From Campylobacter canadensis (GTDB lineage: Bacteria > Campylobacterota > Campylobacteria > Campylobacterales > Campylobacteraceae): a stretch of DNA of 64,000 nt. The notes under the pieces are model-generated. The model saw only the letters and a list, made by a program, of their open reading frames with translations. It made no database searches and was not told the DNA's origin. Numbering within the stretch: position 1 is the stretch's first letter; each line of letters begins with the position of its first letter. Shown here piece after piece: positions 10,063 to 59,830 of the stretch. Both the position numbers and the translations under genes were made by a program. The stretch lies in assembly GCF_013177655.1 (NCBI RefSeq), contig NZ_CP035946.1, forward strand, positions 620,001-684,000, written 5' to 3'.

Positions 10063-11055
10063 TTATTGCAAAAGCTCTTTAACTATTTTAAAGATATCAT
10101 TTTCATCAATATTTGTTATACAAAAATCATTTTTGTCTAGTCTTTTTGCATTGTTTATTTGTATATTTGCATCTATTGTTTTATTTATCTTAGTTGTAAG
10201 TGCGTTTCTCTTACTTGGAGTTGCTCCAAATATTGTAATTGAAGCTATATTTTGAGCAAAGGCTAAATGTGTTGTGCCGCTATCGTTTCCTATAATTAAA
10301 TTCATAGTATTGCTAAGCTGTATTAAATCTTGTAAAGATAGCTTGTCTAAAATATACATTCTTTTGCTTTGAATATTTGAGCAGATATATTGTGCATTTT
10401 GCCTTTCATCTTCACTACCCCAAGCAAAAAATATATTTATTTTTTCATAAGTGCTTAAGATTAGTTTGCATAATTTTAAAATTTTTTCTTTTGGATAATT
10501 TTTATTTGCTTGGCTAGAGCCAGTATAAAATAAAATATTTTTTTCGTTTAATTTTAGATATTCTAATTTTTTATTATCAAAAATAGCTTCTTTTTGATAA
10601 ATTAAAGTGAAATCTAAATTAAGATTTAAAGCAAAATTCATAAGCGAAAAATATCTTTTAAATACATTTTCATCATAAGAACAATTTAGTTTATGTTTAT
10701 AAAAAATACTTGCAAAATCTTCTTTTAGGCTATTTTTATCAAAACCAAAATTATTTTTTGAAAGCATTTTACTAACGAAGGCAGATTTAATTAAGCCTTG
10801 AAAGTCAATTACTAAATCATAATTATTTTTTTTAGCATTTTTTAATATATTAAAACATTCTTTGTATTTTTTATCTTTTAAGGGCAGTGCATAAAGATTA
10901 TCTATGTAATGATGTTTTTCTAAGATATTTTTAAATCTTACATCAACAAACCAGTCAATACTAGCATTATTTACATATTTTTTTATAAACTGCAGCACCA
11001 CAGCAGTTTGAATAATATCGCCTAGTGCTGAAAGTCTAATAATAGCAATCTTCAT
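10063..11055 (-). CDS. waaC: Lipooligosaccharide heptosyltransferase I
   Basis: GT9 family; transfers the first L-glycero-D-manno-heptose from ADP-heptose to Kdo of the LOS inner core, on the cytoplasmic face of the inner membrane. The N-terminal KIAIIRLSALGDIIQT is the family signature. NYDLVIDFQGLIKSA follows, and the C-terminal ADP-heptose site reads IIGNDSGTTHLAFAQNI. 330 residues is the usual length. The gene is unaffected by the G-tract switching of the outer-core genes, as expected for an essential core step. It precedes waaV by 14 nt. A weak AAAAGCC/GGCTTTT hairpin (11056-11080) sits between it and the end of fumC. Confidence 0.92.
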   Translation of the reverse strand: MKIAIIRLSALGDIIQTAVVLQFIKKYVNNASIDWFVDVRFKNILEKHHYIDNLYALPLKDKKYKECFNILKNAKKNNYDLVIDFQGLIKSAFVSKMLSKNNFGFDKNSLKEDFASIFYKHKLNCSYDENVFKRYFSLMNFALNLNLDFTLIYQKEAIFDNKKLEYLKLNEKNILFYTGSSQANKNYPKEKILKLCKLILSTYEKINIFFAWGSEDERQNAQYICSNIQSKRMYILDKLSLQDLIQLSNTMNLIIGNDSGTTHLAFAQNIASITIFGATPSKRNALTTKINKTIDANIQINNAKRLDKNDFCITNIDENDIFKIVKELLQ

Positions 11056-11079
11056 AAAAGCCCTTAAAATAAAGGCTTT

Positions 11080-12471
11080 TTACGCTTTAGGCGTAATCAT
11101 TTTGCTAGGAACGACAAATTTATCAAAATCCTCTTCACTAACTAAACCAAGCTCCATAGCACTTTGTTTTAATGATAAACCTTTTTTGTGTGCATTTTTT
11201 GCAACCTTTGCAGCGTTTTCATAACCAATATGTGGATTTAAAGCTGTTACAAGCATTAATGAATTATTTAAGTTATGCTCAATTCTTTCTTTATTAGCTT
11301 CTATTCCAACTGCACAATGAATATCAAAACTAATCATTGCATCAGCAAGCAATCTTAAACTTTGTAAAAAATTATAAATAATTACAGGTTTAAATACATT
11401 TAATTCAAAATTACCTTGAGATGCAGCTATTTTAATAGCGCTATCATTTCCAAAAACTTGCACACAAACCATAGTTAAAGCTTCGCATTGAGTAGGATTT
11501 ACCTTGCCTGGCATAATTGAGCTACCTGGTTCATTTTCTGGGATATTTATCTCTGCAAGACCGCATCTAGGACCTGATGCTAACCATCTAATATCATTTG
11601 CAATTTTCATTAAATTTGCTGCTAATGCACTTAAAGCACCGTGTAAAAAGCATAAAGCATCATGGCTTGTTAAACCGTGGAATTTATTTGGGCTAGAAAC
11701 AAAGCTTGTATTTAGCATTGAGCTTAGTTTTTCGCTAACTCTTTGCCCTAATTCAGGATGAGCGTTAATTCCAGTACCAACAGCAGTTCCACCTATTGTA
11801 AGCTCTCTTGTGCTATTTAAAGCTAATTTTATATGATTTAATGAGCTTTCAAGCATATAAGCGTAGCCTGAAAATTCTTGACCTAAGGTAAGCGGAGTTG
11901 CATCTTGTAAATGCGTTCTACCTATTTTAATAATTTGCATAAATTCATTTGCTTTTTTTTCTAAGGTATTTTTAAGTTGTGTTAGTGCAGGAATTAGGGT
12001 TTTTTCTACTTCTAGCACAGCAACTATGTGCATTGCAGTTGGAAAGGTATCATTTGAGCTTTGAGACATATTTACATCATCATTAGGATGTACTACTTTT
12101 TCTTTTGTAAAATCTTTATTGCTTAGTTTAGTTGCAAGATTAGCAATAACTTCATTCACATTCATATTTGATTGAGTGCCAGAGCCTGTTTGCCAAATTG
12201 CAAGTGGAAATTCATCATCATATTTATGAGTTAAAATTTCATCGCAGGCTTTTACAATAGCATCTTTTTTCTCATCGCTTAATTTTTTTAAATCATTATT
12301 TACTAAAGCAAGCGCCTTTTTTAAATATACAAAAGAATGTATTAATTCAACTGGCATTTTTTCAGTGCCGATTTTAAAATTCTCAAAACTTCTTTGAGTT
12401 TGTGCTGCCCACAATTTGTCTGCAGGAACTTTTACTTCGCCCATTGTGTCGTGTTCTATACGATAATTCAT
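11080..12471 (-). CDS. fumC: Class II fumarate hydratase
   Basis: Interconverts fumarate and malate in the TCA cycle; soluble homotetramer without an iron-sulfur cluster. Family motifs are clear: [28 protein letters not shown], the [16 protein letters not shown] region, and the [15 protein letters not shown] signature with the catalytic-loop serine. The 463-residue length is standard. The start is 1 base after the pepD stop, so the two genes are co-transcribed and coupled. Confidence 0.97.
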
Positions 12472-54665: not shown

Positions 54666-55063
54666 TAAAAAAATATAAAAATATGCAGCTTTAATAATAT
54701 TTATAAAGGTGATTATAAAAAATAAAAAAATTTTTATAAGGAGTAATAAGTATACGGGTTTTATATATTATAAAAGGAGACTAAAAATAAAAAATCAAGC
54801 TTCGTTGTAACATTTTTTAGTAATGATTTAGAAAGCTTTGCATATTTAAGTATAAAAACACTAATTATTAATGCTACAAGGATAATTCCTATACCTTATA
54901 AAAAATCAAGTGAATTATTTTTTTCATATTCATTATGAATTAGAATTATTTATAATGGCTTAAAAAATCTTGGTTTTAAACTATTTATGAGCTAAAACAT
55001 ACAAAAATAAATTCTAGAATTTATTTTTGTAATTTTAAAGGCATAATTAATCTATAAAAGCAA
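54666..55063 (+). other. Decayed sequence downstream of recG
   Basis: No intact gene. On the minus strand 54761-54898 still reads as a hydrophobic segment and basic tail (GIGIILVALIISVFILKYAKLSKS), with a stop directly upstream, so it may be the remnant of a small membrane protein. A 30-bp perfect palindrome lies at 55001-55030. Confidence 0.45.
55001..55030. terminator. 30-bp perfect palindrome, possible bidirectional terminator
   Basis: Positions 55001-55015 are the exact reverse complement of 55016-55030, centred on TCTAGA. Each strand ends in a T-rich arm. It lies between recG and a decayed minus-strand gene. Confidence 0.5.
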
Positions 55064-55542
55064 TTAAAAAGATTTATTATCTATATTTGTCATAAAATCA
55101 GTATAAAATTTAGGTAGCTTTTCTAAACTATTACAATTTTTAACATTGAAGTTATTGCTAAAACACTACTAGCATCAGAATCTAACTCTTGATTAAACTT
55201 TTCACACCCTGAAAACATAGTTTGCATTAATTACATTTTTTATATCAAAATTGCAAGTTTTATTAAATTTCTTGCAAGCTCTAAACATAAACGATATATC
55301 AACAACATTAGAAGTATCAAAACTAAGACTTTCATTAAAATCTTTACAATCCATAAACATACTACTCATACTAACAACATTTTTTGTATTCTATTCATTT
55401 ATATCCTTATAATCTTTCTACATACCATAAAAAAGCATATTCATATTTTTTATAAAGTAGTATCAATGTCGCCTAGATGAATACTCTTGCCAACTACAAG
55501 CTATTTTAACTCGGCTTTTGTAGTTGGTTTATATTTTTTCAT
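55064..55542 (-). pseudogene. BspA-like DUF285 repeat surface protein, decayed
   Basis: Read on the minus strand from ATG 55542, the sequence starts MKKYKPTTKAELK and then hits TAG; it continues with a region like LGDIDT, after which the repeats appear: MFMDCKDFNESLSFDTSNVVDISFMF, next a repeat with ACKKFN, a frame change, then MFSGCEKFNQELDSDASSV. This MFxxCxxFN...FDTSNV pattern is that of the 25-26-residue repeats of BspA/DUF285 surface proteins. The end reads LEKLPKFYTDFM before a stop at 55064. One early stop and at least two frameshifts make it non-functional, and it keeps only three or so repeats, fewer than intact relatives. Confidence 0.85.
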
Positions 55543-55705
55543 CTTTTATCCTTGAAATTTTTTGTAGTTATATCATAAGCAGGTGCCTGAACTTGTCCAT
55601 ATAAAAATATTTTGAAAAATATTTGGAATTTATATCCGTAATTTCGTTTTCAATTTGCTCTTGGAATTTTTACTTTCATTCTCGTAAAATTATCTAAATT
55701 AGATT

Positions 55706-55742
55706 AAAAATACACGAAATAAATTCTATCTCGTGTATTTTT
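55706..55742 (-). terminator. Terminator of the DUF262 operon
   Basis: 12-bp perfect stem (55706-55717 with 55731-55742) 4 bases beyond the stop of the DUF262-DUF1524 gene; T runs flank it on both strands. Confidence 0.85.
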
Positions 55743-55746
55743 AGCA

Positions 55747-57720
55747 TTAGTTATTTTTTACTTGCTCTTGTGAATTAAAAAAAGAATCTTTTAAGACTCC
55801 TAACATTGCATTTTGGTGTTTTTCAATTTGGGTTTTTTGCCAAATTTTGTTATTTAAGATGTTGCCTTTATCATCTTTTTGATATTCTTCATTTTTATAT
55901 ATATCTAAAAGTTTTAAGCTAATTACTAAGCCTTTTTTTAAGTAACTATCAAATTGTGATTGTTTCTCATTAAACGGCTTATTGCTAAATCCTGAATTTT
56001 CTCCATCAGTTATCAAAACTAGATTTCCAAAATTATCCAACACTTCTTGATTTTCTTCTTGCTTAGCCAAACCACTTACATCATTTTGCGCTAAAACATG
56101 TTCAACTGAATTAACATACCTAAAACGATATTTTTCAATATCATCTTTATGTTTTTTCTTAAAATTTTCATCAGTTAATAAGTAATATTCCAAGCGATAA
56201 AACCAATAATGTAGGGTATTTGTGCCTTTGTTTAAAAAATTAAAGCAATTATCTTTTAATTCATAGTTTTTATTTTCATTTTTAAAATTATCTGTAATAT
56301 CTAATAATGAGTTTGTGCTATCCTCTTCCAATGATTTATAAGCCAAAGCTGTATCAAGATTTTTTAGATAATTTTTAAGTTCTTCTGCTTTATTTTGCAA
56401 TGTTCCTAAATAAGTTTTACTTTCTAAAATTCGTTTTTTACAAAATTCTAAATAGTGCGTTAAAAAGTGGTGGTAGTTGGTGTTATCTCCACGCCTTGCT
56501 ACTCTTAGATAGTTTTGGATTAGTTTTAATTCAGTAGTATTATCAACTTCATGCCAATCATCGTTTTTGTTACTATTCTTACTAAATCTATTCCATAACT
56601 TATACACATTTTCATCATCATCAGCTTTTCTTTTTATCACAAAGGTATCAAAGATTATTCTATATTCTTTTAAAGCTTCTATGATTTTTTTTACTTGTTC
56701 TGCGTTCAAATTATCATTTAATTTATCCCAAGTATTTTCAAGGAATTTATCTTTTTTTATTGATATTTGTGTTCCTTCTTTGAAAATTTTTTCAGACGAT
56801 TTTGATAAAATCTTAAAAACATGTAAAATAAAAGTTGGAAAATCAATAATACTCTCAAACTCGGCTCGTTCTTTTTTCTTATCTTCTTTTTTACTTATTT
56901 TATGCCCTTGAATTATTTTTTCAATTTTTTGGCTCTCACCTATCATGTTGTTGTTCTCACTATTATTTACAAAACCAAAATCTGAAAAATAATTCATCTG
57001 CGAACATTCATCAAATATCCTAGCGTATTCTGTAACTTCGCTTTTATCATTATCGCTTATTAGCTTTAATAACCTTGCCTTTAAAATATCTGTGCCATTA
57101 AGCTGAACGCCTGTATTATTCATCCTTACGAAATATTTATTTAGCTCTACTTGATCGCCTAAAATCACTAGATTGAACCTAACATTAGTAAAGATAAAAT
57201 TGCAAAAACTTTTTAGCTCATTATCTTCAAAATACTCATCAAAATAATCAAAAGCTAATTTGATATTTGTATTTGTTCTGTCAAAATCATAATTCCAAAT
57301 GGCATTTTCATCATCTTCTCTAATAGGCATACGGATTCTGCATTTATGGTTATTAGAGTTTTTATCCTCACTATTTACAAAAGCAAATTTATAAGCTTTT
57401 TCAAATTCTCCTTTTGCTTCTTGCATTTTGTTATTTTTAAAGCACATATACACACATAAGAAAAATATCGTGCTAAGTCTTTGTTGCCCATCTACAAGCT
57501 CAAAATTATCTTCGTTGTTAGCCACTACAACATTTCCTATAAAATGAGTTTTGCTATTATCATTTATACAATTCTTAAAATCATCTAAAAGAATTTTTAT
57601 CTGTTCTTTATCCCAAGTATAAAGCCTTTGATAAGGTGGAATTATAAATATTTTATTAAATTCACTCTCTAAAATATCGCCCAATTTACAAATCTGTGAA
57701 ATTGTTTTAATTTGCTCCAT
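55747..57720 (-). CDS. DUF262-DUF1524 protein, GmrSD-like nuclease
   Basis: 657 residues. The N-terminal DUF262 (ParB-like NTPase) domain has IPPYQRLYTWDKEQIKIL and FELVDGQQRLSTIFFL with the family DGQQR motif. A long helical middle follows. The C-terminal DUF1524 (HNH-like) domain reads YVNSVEHVLAQND with the catalytic-type His at about 541, then NFGNLVLITDGENSGFSNKPF and a last W-Q-K-T-Q-I motif. DUF262 and DUF1524 are the S and D halves of the type IV modified-DNA restriction enzyme GmrSD, so restriction or defence is the likely role. The usual EHILPQ reads EHVLAQ. It overlaps the upstream DUF262 gene by 14 nt, and a strong terminator follows. Confidence 0.85.
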   Translation of the reverse strand: MEQIKTISQICKLGDILESEFNKIFIIPPYQRLYTWDKEQIKILLDDFKNCINDNSKTHFIGNVVVANNEDNFELVDGQQRLSTIFFLCVYMCFKNNKMQEAKGEFEKAYKFAFVNSEDKNSNNHKCRIRMPIREDDENAIWNYDFDRTNTNIKLAFDYFDEYFEDNELKSFCNFIFTNVRFNLVILGDQVELNKYFVRMNNTGVQLNGTDILKARLLKLISDNDKSEVTEYARIFDECSQMNYFSDFGFVNNSENNNMIGESQKIEKIIQGHKISKKEDKKKERAEFESIIDFPTFILHVFKILSKSSEKIFKEGTQISIKKDKFLENTWDKLNDNLNAEQVKKIIEALKEYRIIFDTFVIKRKADDDENVYKLWNRFSKNSNKNDDWHEVDNTTELKLIQNYLRVARRGDNTNYHHFLTHYLEFCKKRILESKTYLGTLQNKAEELKNYLKNLDTALAYKSLEEDSTNSLLDITDNFKNENKNYELKDNCFNFLNKGTNTLHYWFYRLEYYLLTDENFKKKHKDDIEKYRFRYVNSVEHVLAQNDVSGLAKQEENQEVLDNFGNLVLITDGENSGFSNKPFNEKQSQFDSYLKKGLVISLKLLDIYKNEEYQKDDKGNILNNKIWQKTQIEKHQNAMLGVLKDSFFNSQEQVKNN

Positions 57721-59041
57721 TTTGTTCTCCTAAAAAATGACCTAAAATTCCGTATTTTTTAAATTCTTCATTTAAATAATCTTTACATAGCTCTTTATAG
57801 TCTCCACGCTTTCCACCATCGATTGGATTTTTTGCAATCTCAATTTGCTCATACAAATAACATTCCCTAGCTATTTCATCTAATATCTCGTAAATTCTGC
57901 TCTCATAATTATTTAAAAATATAGTTTTTATGATTTTTTCACTACTACCCATAGTGCTTTCCCATCGCACACTTTGATAGGTAAGTCTATTTGCATAAAT
58001 AATCCTTGTAGCAAATCTCATCATCTTATCAAAATTACCACTCTTAAACCTATCCATAAATACCACCATACACATACATAAGGCTTTTTGTAAATACCCT
58101 GTCCCATCTAAATGATTTAGCTTTTGATAAAAATCTGTTTGCCTTATAATTTTCAGTATTTCATAAAATTTTCTAAAATAATCAAAAAACTCAACCCCAT
58201 TTGCAAAATCGCTAATAATTCCATAATCACACGAACTTTGTCCTAATAAATTCTCTTTACAAAACTCATCAAATATCAAATCATCACTCCGCCATTTAGT
58301 TCTTTCGTGCTCTTGTTTTATGATTTTTCTAGTAAAATTTAGTATTTTATTTAAAAAATCATTAATATTGTATTTATCGGCATTTATAACGCTCTCAAAA
58401 TATCTAGCATTAGCATTTTGCAAATCTTTATGACGCTCTTGCATGGCTTGTAAATGAAAGGCTTTTATAAGGTCATAATTTTCTATCTTTTTGCCTTTTG
58501 AGTTAGTGTTATCAAAAAAGATAAAAGCATCATCGGCATTTGTTGTAGCTACTATTATAAATTGAGTTTTTTCTAGCTTTTCTAAAAATTTACTAGCCTT
58601 ATCTTCATTGCTCAGATAGTTTTTAATATACTCGTAATTAGTCTTGATATTATCTTGAGAAATTTTATGAAAAAAGCTTACATCTTTTAAATAGTTATTA
58701 TATTTTTCTAAAAGTTCTTTTAAATTATTATGGTTGTTTAAAGAAGCCATTAAAATAAGCTTAATTGTAGTTAGTCTTTGCTGTCCGTCTATTACTTCAT
58801 AAATTGTTTTGCCATCATCTGCTTTATTTTCAGTTTTATGCAAAATAATAGAGCCTAACAAGGCTCCATCTTTAGTATTTTCAATATCTTTTAAAAGCAT
58901 TCTTGTTTGCTTTATCTCCCATACATAAGGGCGTTGATAATCAGGTATGCTAAGCTCTAATTCACTCGCTAAAGCACTAAAACTTGCGACATTAGAACTT
59001 ACTGGATTTTCATCACTTAAATCAAATTTAATCTCATTCAT
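57707..59041 (-). CDS. DUF262 protein, GmrS-like
   Basis: 444 residues. DUF262 domain at the N-terminus: ELSIPDYQRPYVWEIKQTRML and YEVIDGQQRLTTIKLI, with FIFFDNTNSKGKKIENYDLIKAFHL as the usual downstream helix (normally F-x-x-x-N-x-x-G). I see no clear DUF1524 EHxxPQ motif, so the protein seems to be the NTPase/sensor part alone. It is coupled to the DUF262-DUF1524 gene behind it by a 14-nt overlap, and it starts 2 nt after the small gene upstream with AAGGAG as ribosome site inside that gene's end. Two different DUF262 proteins in one operon suggest a two-subunit system. Confidence 0.85.
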   Translation of the reverse strand: MNEIKFDLSDENPVSSNVASFSALASELELSIPDYQRPYVWEIKQTRMLLKDIENTKDGALLGSIILHKTENKADDGKTIYEVIDGQQRLTTIKLILMASLNNHNNLKELLEKYNNYLKDVSFFHKISQDNIKTNYEYIKNYLSNEDKASKFLEKLEKTQFIIVATTNADDAFIFFDNTNSKGKKIENYDLIKAFHLQAMQERHKDLQNANARYFESVINADKYNINDFLNKILNFTRKIIKQEHERTKWRSDDLIFDEFCKENLLGQSSCDYGIISDFANGVEFFDYFRKFYEILKIIRQTDFYQKLNHLDGTGYLQKALCMCMVVFMDRFKSGNFDKMMRFATRIIYANRLTYQSVRWESTMGSSEKIIKTIFLNNYESRIYEILDEIARECYLYEQIEIAKNPIDGGKRGDYKELCKDYLNEEFKKYGILGHFLGEQNGAN

Positions 59042-59043
59042 CT

Positions 59044-59325
59044 TTACTCCTTACTAATCGCTATTATCTTTAAACCACTTTTAGGATTATAATGGGTATT
59101 GTAATACATTTTATCATCTTGCAACCTTTCTTGGAATTCTAAGAGTTCAAACATTCCCAAATCATCGTTATGTATGATATGTAATATCGTTTGGGTGCTA
59201 AAGCCTTGTATCTCATCAAAACTCTTATATATCCTAACCTTTCCACCATCTTTACATACCTTACAAATCTCATCTAAAAGGCTTATGATTTCATTTGTTG
59301 GTTGGCATTCTTCTTCAATAGTCAT
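59044..59325 (-). CDS. Small acidic protein of the DUF262 operon, possibly truncated
   Basis: 93 residues from ATG 59325, no signal or membrane segment, function unknown. The same frame is open upstream for another 20 or so codons (to a TAG near 59388) and there reads LGIGYNTARELVESIKDE, which resembles the winged-helix FtsK gamma domain (IGYNRAARxxxxLE). No ATG or good ribosome site precedes that part, so the gene may be a 5'-truncated remainder of a longer protein. The stop is 2 nt before the DUF262 gene, whose ribosome site lies within this gene, so the two are linked in one transcript. Confidence 0.5.
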   Translation of the reverse strand: MTIEEECQPTNEIISLLDEICKVCKDGGKVRIYKSFDEIQGFSTQTILHIIHNDDLGMFELLEFQERLQDDKMYYNTHYNPKSGLKIIAISKE

Positions 59326-59411
59326 TTCATCTTTTATGCTTTCTACTAGCTCTCGTGCAGTATTGTAACCTATGCCTAATTTTTTATATATACACTATAC
59401 TAGATATTTGC

Positions 59412-59765
59412 TTATAAAGTACTTTTGCTTTTTCTATCATTACTTTTAGCTCTAGTTTCATAGCTTATACTATAAGTTTTTTTAACCTCTAAAACCTTAG
59501 CCAAGATATAAAATGTAGTTAGCCTTTGTCGTGCATCTAACACTTCGTATTTATTATCGCCCTTATTTGCTAATATGATAGGTTGCATATAATAACAATT
59601 GCTACCTTTTAAGCTTTTGCTAAAAAACTCACTTAAATCATCTAGCGATGTCTTAGCCTCAAGCTCTTTTCATCTATGTCCACGCTGATAGTTTGGGATA
59701 TAAAAGTTATATTTGTTTTTTAAAAGTCTTTTATAATTTTTTAATTTGCTTATTTTTTCTTTTAA
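59412..59765 (-). pseudogene. Broken third DUF262 gene
   Basis: On the minus strand one frame of 118 codons, open from 59765, reads KNKYNFYIPNYQRGHR, then TGA, then KELEAKTSLDDLSEFFSKS, and YEVLDARQRLTTFYILAKVL. This is the N-terminal DUF262 pattern (IPxYQRxYxW ... LDGQQRLTT), with the DGQQR motif altered to DARQR, the W codon turned into TGA, no start codon and no C-terminal part. It stops at 59412, shortly before the FtsK-gamma-like stretch of the next gene. It is a dead relative of the two intact DUF262 genes downstream. Confidence 0.85.
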
Positions 59766-59800: not shown

Positions 59801-59830
59801 AAAAAAGCTCCGCAAAAGCAGAGCTTTAAT
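59801..59830 (-). terminator. Terminator of the suc-oor operon
   Basis: AAAGCTC/GAGCTTT stem (59804-59810 with 59821-59827) extended by an inner GC pair set around a TTTT loop, starting 4 bases past the oorC stop, then T6 on the minus strand. Confidence 0.85.

What the first reader, a model, noticed from the sequence alone, without database searches (positions are those of the whole stretch)
55747..59765. Tandem DUF262 operon with a broken third DUF262 gene: candidate two-subunit anti-invader system
Seen: a minus-strand unit of a 93-residue unknown protein, a 444-residue DUF262 protein and a 657-residue DUF262-DUF1524 protein, with 2-nt and 14-nt junctions and a strong terminator. A dead third DUF262 gene lies directly upstream. 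Known: DUF262 plus DUF1524 make up GmrSD, a type IV enzyme against modified phage DNA, and related single-chain proteins also restrict. Inference: a DUF262-only protein paired with a DUF262-DUF1524 protein may divide recognition/NTPase and nuclease roles, which differs from classical GmrS+GmrD because both chains keep the DGQQR domain. The recG-flanking position and surrounding decay look like a gene-exchange hotspot.
Basis: partly seen in the sequence, partly recalled or inferred. Interest (0 to 1): 0.8.

Follow-up and report, generated by a model that had tools for sequence, protein, structure and literature searches.

The report
TgvAB-type two-gene type IV restriction pair
The two neighbouring genes are an intact member of an already described family of two-protein bacterial enzymes that cut chemically modified phage DNA, and the 'small protein' and 'third gene' beside them are broken remnants, so the find is mostly ordinary.

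Summary
A 444-aa DUF262 protein (57707-59041 -) and a 657-aa DUF262-DUF1524 protein (55747-57720 -) overlap by 14 nt and are followed by an AT-rich terminator. All catalytic motifs are intact. This composition, in this gene order, is already published: TgvAB (V. cholerae, 2024) and GmrS1/GmrSD2 (E. coli ECOR17, 2025); GrwAB is a relative in the opposite order. Both window proteins match an E. coli pair over nearly their full length; that pair's nuclease carries E582/H583, the residues mutated in ECOR17 GmrSD2. In a genome sample, 63 of 80 A-type hits are followed directly by a B-type gene. So the two-subunit idea is right but not new.

Corrections: the '93-residue protein' is the open tail of a frameshifted 132-aa FtsK-gamma-type HTH gene, intact in two sister species; the third DUF262 gene is a truncated fragment of another DUF262 lineage; the recG-oorC junction occurs only in this genome.

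New here: both genes are recombination mosaics among four sister species, and in two relatives the pair lies behind a leucine-rich-repeat gene and the HTH gene. Restriction activity of this pair is inferred, not shown.

The parts
57707..59041 (-). tgvA-like gene (GmrS1 type), 444 aa: DUF262 + DUF7834, motifs Q36R37, D85GQQR89, F176xxxN180
55747..57720 (-). tgvB-like gene (GmrSD2 type), 657 aa: DUF262 + DUF1524, motifs Q31R32, D77GQQR81, F197xxxN201, E540H541...N566...N575
57707..57720 (-). 14-nt overlap of the two reading frames (likely translational coupling; same -14 in L122, L104, L108, L144, L062, L063)
55705..55743 (-). terminator-like hairpin directly after the tgvB-like stop
59044..59325 (-). 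open C-terminal 93 codons of a frameshifted 132-aa FtsK_gamma-type HTH gene; its HTH half (about 59326-59440) is out of frame
59412..59765 (-). truncated, stop-ridden 5' fragment of another DUF262 gene (different DUF262 lineage)
54960..55545 (-). decayed BspA-type leucine-rich-repeat (DUF285) gene downstream of the pair
59804..59827 (-). terminator of the oor operon, upstream boundary of the islet

Best explanation
The pair is a two-subunit, modification-dependent (type IV) restriction enzyme of the TgvAB / GmrS1-GmrSD2 kind. Inferred mechanism: the A subunit (DUF262+DUF7834) and B subunit (DUF262+DUF1524) form a complex; both DUF262 domains bind and hydrolyse NTP and take part in sensing modified bases in invading DNA; the His-Me finger of B then cuts that DNA. 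Shown here: domain content, intact motifs, operon structure, near-full-length homology of both chains to published-type pairs, and travel of A with B across bacteria. Not shown: expression, activity, and which DNA modification is recognised. Discrete allele blocks in both chains, swapped between sister species, suggest that recognition or inhibitor-escape surfaces lie in the A C-terminal half and in the B segment between DGQQR and FxxxN (inference).
For: Domains and motifs. Family-profile matches to an E. coli pair whose B has E582/H583, as in ECOR17 GmrSD2: A profile 7.7e-64 over residues 3-439 of 483; B profile 6e-96 over 19-675 of 680. hhalign against the clade holding type-I-RM-embedded pairs: A-A 100%, E 3e-41; B-B 100%, E 3e-71; cross comparisons align only about 180 N-terminal residues. 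L153 is an hsdM-hsdS-A-B-hsdR cluster, the published tgvAB layout. 63 of 80 sampled A-like hits are directly followed by B. A and B distance matrices correlate, r=0.935, best of 2000 shuffles 0.16. Published: both genes, both DGQQR motifs and the H/N residues are needed for TgvAB activity (PMC11411939); both genes and E582/H583 are needed in ECOR17 (PMC12373910). Nearest solved folds are DndI and SspE.
Against: No expression or phage data. One search lists no sigma-70-like site on the minus strand between 59325 and 59800, and the upstream gene is broken, so expression is unproven. The V. cholerae TgvAB sequences themselves could not be fetched; identity with ECOR17 GmrSD2 rests on residue numbers and gene layout, not on the strain's own sequence. 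The distance correlation is partly common descent of linked genes. The AlphaFold model of B is poor (pLDDT 60).
Confidence: 0.86

Rival explanations
1. B (657 aa) works alone as a single-chain GmrSD/BrxU-like enzyme and A is an accidental or dispensable neighbour.
For: Single-chain GmrSD and BrxU act alone (PMC4437046, PMC8565348, as cited in the abstracts and). B has all catalytic parts. 8 of the 80 sampled hits are single-chain proteins.
Against: A is kept intact with all DUF262 motifs and precedes B in 63 of 80 hits across many phyla. In TgvAB and ECOR17 neither gene protects alone.
Confidence: 0.07
2. The locus is decaying: the open frames of A and B survive only because they arrived recently, and the system is silent in this genome.
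For: Neighbouring HTH, DUF262 and LRR genes are broken. Parts of A are 92-100% identical in DNA to sister species although conserved core DNA is only 83-84% identical, so the arrival is recent. No minus-strand promoter hit just upstream.
Against: Two overlapping ORFs, 444 and 657 aa, without a stop, with every motif intact, and an intact terminator.
Confidence: 0.2
3. The pair is a phosphorothioate-sensing enzyme of the SspE/DndI kind rather than a modified-base sensor.
For: Best solved-structure matches are DndI (9jfl) and SspE. PADLOC SspE profiles hit both chains.
Against: The matches cover mainly the shared DUF262 domain. PADLOC Orf5 and HEC-06 profiles score higher than SspE. SspE and DndI are single chains working with ssp/dnd modification genes; no such genes are next to the pair, though the whole genome was not scanned for them.
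Confidence: 0.05
4. The four-gene string LRR - HTH - A - B of relatives is one functional system in which the LRR protein or HTH protein is a sensor or regulator of the restriction pair.
For: In L062 and L063 the frames overlap (7 and 4 nt) in the order LRR, HTH132, A, B. LRR genes also precede the second pair of G130.
Against: In the window both extra genes are broken or absent while A and B are intact. The G129 pair and the second G128 pair lack them. HTH132 occurs in only 3 of 153 family genomes. LRR genes are scattered through these genomes.
Confidence: 0.12

Closest known systems
TgvAB of Vibrio cholerae VPI-2 (PMC11411939; Gomez and Waters in parallel)
   Same: Gene order A then B; A = DUF262 only, B = DUF262+DUF1524; QR, DGQQR, FxxxN in both; H/N His-Me residues in B.
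   Different: The V. cholerae pair is embedded in a type I RM operon; the window pair is not. Sequence identity to the T1RM-embedded pair L153 is about 28%. Target specificity unknown here.
GmrS1/GmrSD2 of E. coli ECOR17 (PMC12373910)
   Same: Same two-gene architecture; both window chains match the E. coli pair L175 (E582/H583) over nearly full length.
   Different: Remote sequences; flanking genes differ (type I RM genes and hhe in E. coli).
GrwAB of WASA V. cholerae (PMC12137116)
   Same: Two DUF262 chains, one with DUF1524, both needed.
   Different: Nuclease gene first; GrwB has a longer C-terminus of other domains, described as distinct from TgvA.
Single-chain GmrSD / BrxU / SspE / DndI
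   Same: DUF262 and DUF1524 domains as in B.
   Different: One chain only; no A partner.
HEC-06 and Orf5 (PADLOC profiles)
   Same: Best PADLOC hits for both chains, mainly through the DUF262 domain.
   Different: Single-protein profiles; PADLOC-DB 2.0.0 (2023) returned no two-gene DUF262 system.

Membership tests
TgvAB / GmrS1-GmrSD2 two-gene type IV restriction | Adjacent co-directional genes, A with DUF262 but no DUF1524, then B with DUF262+DUF1524 | tested here: met
TgvAB / GmrS1-GmrSD2 two-gene type IV restriction | QR, DGQQR and FxxxN in both DUF262 domains | tested here: met
TgvAB / GmrS1-GmrSD2 two-gene type IV restriction | H...N...N His-Me nuclease motif in B | tested here: met
   H541, N566, N575
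TgvAB / GmrS1-GmrSD2 two-gene type IV restriction | Each chain homologous beyond DUF262 to its own counterpart (A to A including DUF7834, B to B) | tested here: met
   Tested against L153 (hsdM-hsdS-A-B-hsdR) and L175 (E582/H583), not against VC1767/VC1766 themselves
TgvAB / GmrS1-GmrSD2 two-gene type IV restriction | Both genes needed for anti-phage activity | not testable with these tools
   needs phage assays
TgvAB / GmrS1-GmrSD2 two-gene type IV restriction | Restriction depends on DNA base modification | not testable with these tools
   needs phage assays
TgvAB (strict name: type I-embedded) | Embedded between hsdS and hsdR | tested here: not met
   window flanks are recG and oorC; not required of homologs: the paper counts 1,341 tgvAB against 79 five-gene clusters (PMC11411939)
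GrwAB | Nuclease gene first, partner with long C-terminus distinct from TgvA | tested here: not met
   order is A then B; A C-terminus is DUF7834; GrwB itself was not compared
Classical GmrS + GmrD | DUF262-only plus DUF1524-only proteins | tested here: not met
   B keeps DUF262
SspE / DndI phosphorothioate sensors | Single chain with adjacent ssp/dnd modification genes | tested here: not met
   no such genes recognised among the ORFs around the pair (read by eye); the rest of the genome was not searched

The most novel reading that the evidence does not exclude
Within this genus the pair is diversified by exchange of discrete allele blocks in both subunits, comparable to specificity-domain swapping in type I RM, so that the two DUF262 chains jointly set target or inhibitor specificity; and an LRR protein plus an FtsK-gamma HTH protein form an accessory sensor/regulator module in some copies.
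Probability: 0.22. Interest if true: 0.55.

Novelty: new member of a known kind. Interest (0 to 1): 0.27.

Why it matters
It extends the two-gene GmrSD family to a further Campylobacteraceae genus. Why the nuclease chain needs a DUF262-only partner is an open question in the TgvAB papers; the mosaic allele blocks here point to specific segments of both chains that could be swapped to test whether both set specificity.

Tried and rejected
A new system from composition alone: rejected after finding TgvAB, GrwAB and ECOR17 GmrS1/GmrSD2 in the literature. The 93-aa protein as a third subunit: rejected, it is a frameshifted remnant, found in only 3 of 153 family genomes. A recG-oorC junction survey: not meaningful, the junction is specific to this genome. 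Search of viral contigs for A and HTH132: no relatives. DNA search of E. coli genomes with the L153 pair: no match. Plasmid search with HTH132: no match. A Vibrionaceae-centred genome search to reach V. cholerae tgvAB was not possible with the tool. First attempts with a stop-containing translation failed. The B tree with the slow model did not finish; a faster one was used.

Full report
What is there. On the minus strand of the window two genes overlap by 14 nt: a 444-aa protein (57707-59041) and a 657-aa protein (55747-57720), followed by an 18-pair AT-rich hairpin (55743-55705). Pfam finds DUF262 (GmrSD_N) plus DUF7834 in the first and DUF262 plus DUF1524 (GmrSD_C) in the second. In alignments with relatives every signature motif is intact: YQR, DGQQR and FxxxN in both, EH...N...N in the nuclease domain.

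The neighbours are remnants. The 93-aa ORF corresponds to residues 40-132 of a 132-aa gene that is intact in two sister genomes (L062:9717-10115 -, L063:6605-7003 +). In the window the 5' part is present but out of frame because two bases are missing relative to the relatives. The intact version carries an FtsK-gamma-type helix-turn-helix (PF09397, 31.4 bits, cut-off 30.6). The third DUF262 gene is a truncated 5' fragment with five stops. No match to it was found in the sister species; its nearest match (51%) is in another genus, so it is a different DUF262 lineage. Downstream, 54.96-55.55 kb holds a decayed BspA-type LRR gene (DUF285).

What it is. The literature already holds this composition in this order. 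TgvAB of V. cholerae VPI-2 is a DUF262 protein followed by a DUF262-DUF1524 protein; both genes, both DGQQR motifs and the His/Asn residues are needed, and T-even phages with modified cytosines are restricted (PMC11411939). GmrS1/GmrSD2 of E. coli ECOR17 is the same arrangement and also needs both genes and E582/H583 (PMC12373910). GrwAB is related but has the nuclease gene first and a different partner (PMC12137116). An E. coli chromosomal pair fetched here (L175) has E582/H583 in a 680-aa B chain and is therefore very likely the ECOR17 type. The window family profiles match it over nearly full length (A: E 7.7e-64; B: E 6e-96). Another pair, L153, is hsdM-hsdS-A-B-hsdR, the published five-gene layout. 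Profile-profile comparison aligns A with A and B with B over most of their length, but A with B only over about 180 N-terminal residues.

How general it is. In a sample of 80 A-like hits from GTDB species genomes, 63 are followed directly by a B-like gene on the same strand. Of the other 17, nine are cut by contig ends or are start-codon artefacts and eight are single-chain proteins. Distances of A and B among 74 pairs correlate (r 0.935; highest of 2,000 label shuffles 0.16), though common descent of linked genes gives part of that. In the A tree the window falls with Campylobacteraceae pairs (7 rows, 100/100), next to a clade that holds type-I-RM-embedded pairs (81/83). The faster B tree gives the same Campylobacteraceae group but does not place it next to that clade.

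What is less ordinary. Among four sister species the genes are mosaics. A residues 1-200 are mostly 83-100% identical in DNA, except a short variable block near residues 97-125; the C-terminal half is about 77-96% identical between the window and G128 but mostly 40-75% in the other comparisons. In B, residues 41-200 group the window with G128, residues 241-280 with G130, and residues 441-560 with G129. Neighbouring informative sites disagree far less often than in 5,000 permutations (none as low). The conserved oor operon is only 83-84% identical in DNA and recG 58-61% in protein between these species, so the near-identical blocks reflect recent exchange. The pair sits at different sites in these genomes, three times just upstream of dnaE.

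In two sisters the order is LRR gene, HTH132, A, B, with overlapping frames. Since the window copy has no intact LRR or HTH gene while A and B remain open, these are at most accessory.

Mechanism, with status. Shown: domains, motifs, operon structure, homology, co-occurrence. From published work on relatives: NTP-dependent sensing by DUF262, cutting by the His-Me domain, need for both chains. Inferred: that this pair is expressed, forms a complex, and restricts DNA with modified bases; and that the exchanged blocks mark recognition or inhibitor-contact surfaces. The B-chain model is poor (pLDDT 60), and fold matches to DndI and SspE reflect mainly the shared DUF262 domain.

Verdict. A real, probably working, ordinary member of a recently described family; interest is in the mosaic pattern rather than in the pair as such.

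Noticed in passing
L062, L063, L064, window 55747-59041: Both genes of the pair are recombination mosaics between four sister species, with discrete allele blocks (A C-terminal half; B residues 82-190, 258-282, 441-560).
   Followed up: yes
L063:10573-14878 +; L180:8166-13535 -; L181:2632-5564 +; L182:7698-10306 -; L062:4081-6266 and 10109-11869: DUF285 leucine-rich-repeat proteins without an obvious signal peptide (by eye) are expanded in this genus and repeatedly sit beside immunity-like NTPases: MoxR-vWA (bpMoxR), IIGP/AIG1-like GTPases and the TgvAB-like pair.
   Followed up: partly
[quoted passage not shown] The profile search did not detect it.
   Followed up: partly
L062:10109-11869: By eye, the C-terminal part of the 586-aa LRR protein seems to hold a second FtsK-gamma-like helix-turn-helix; the Pfam scan did not report it.
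   Followed up: no
L064:7914-11315, L065:8276-10947, L063:15992-18735: TgvAB-like pairs recur directly upstream of dnaE in three sister genomes, a likely integration hotspot; the G130 copy of A there is frameshifted.
   Followed up: partly
G000:C1:1685.5-1689.4 kb (L177:7470-11382): Own-genome cluster of two large DUF285 LRR genes, one with DUF4116 repeats.
   Followed up: no
L175, L176 (E. coli): Relatives of the Serratia/ECOR17-type pair cover at least 80% of the query in 251 of 5,426 complete E. coli genomes; in the two loci read they lie near type I RM genes and hhe.
   Followed up: partly
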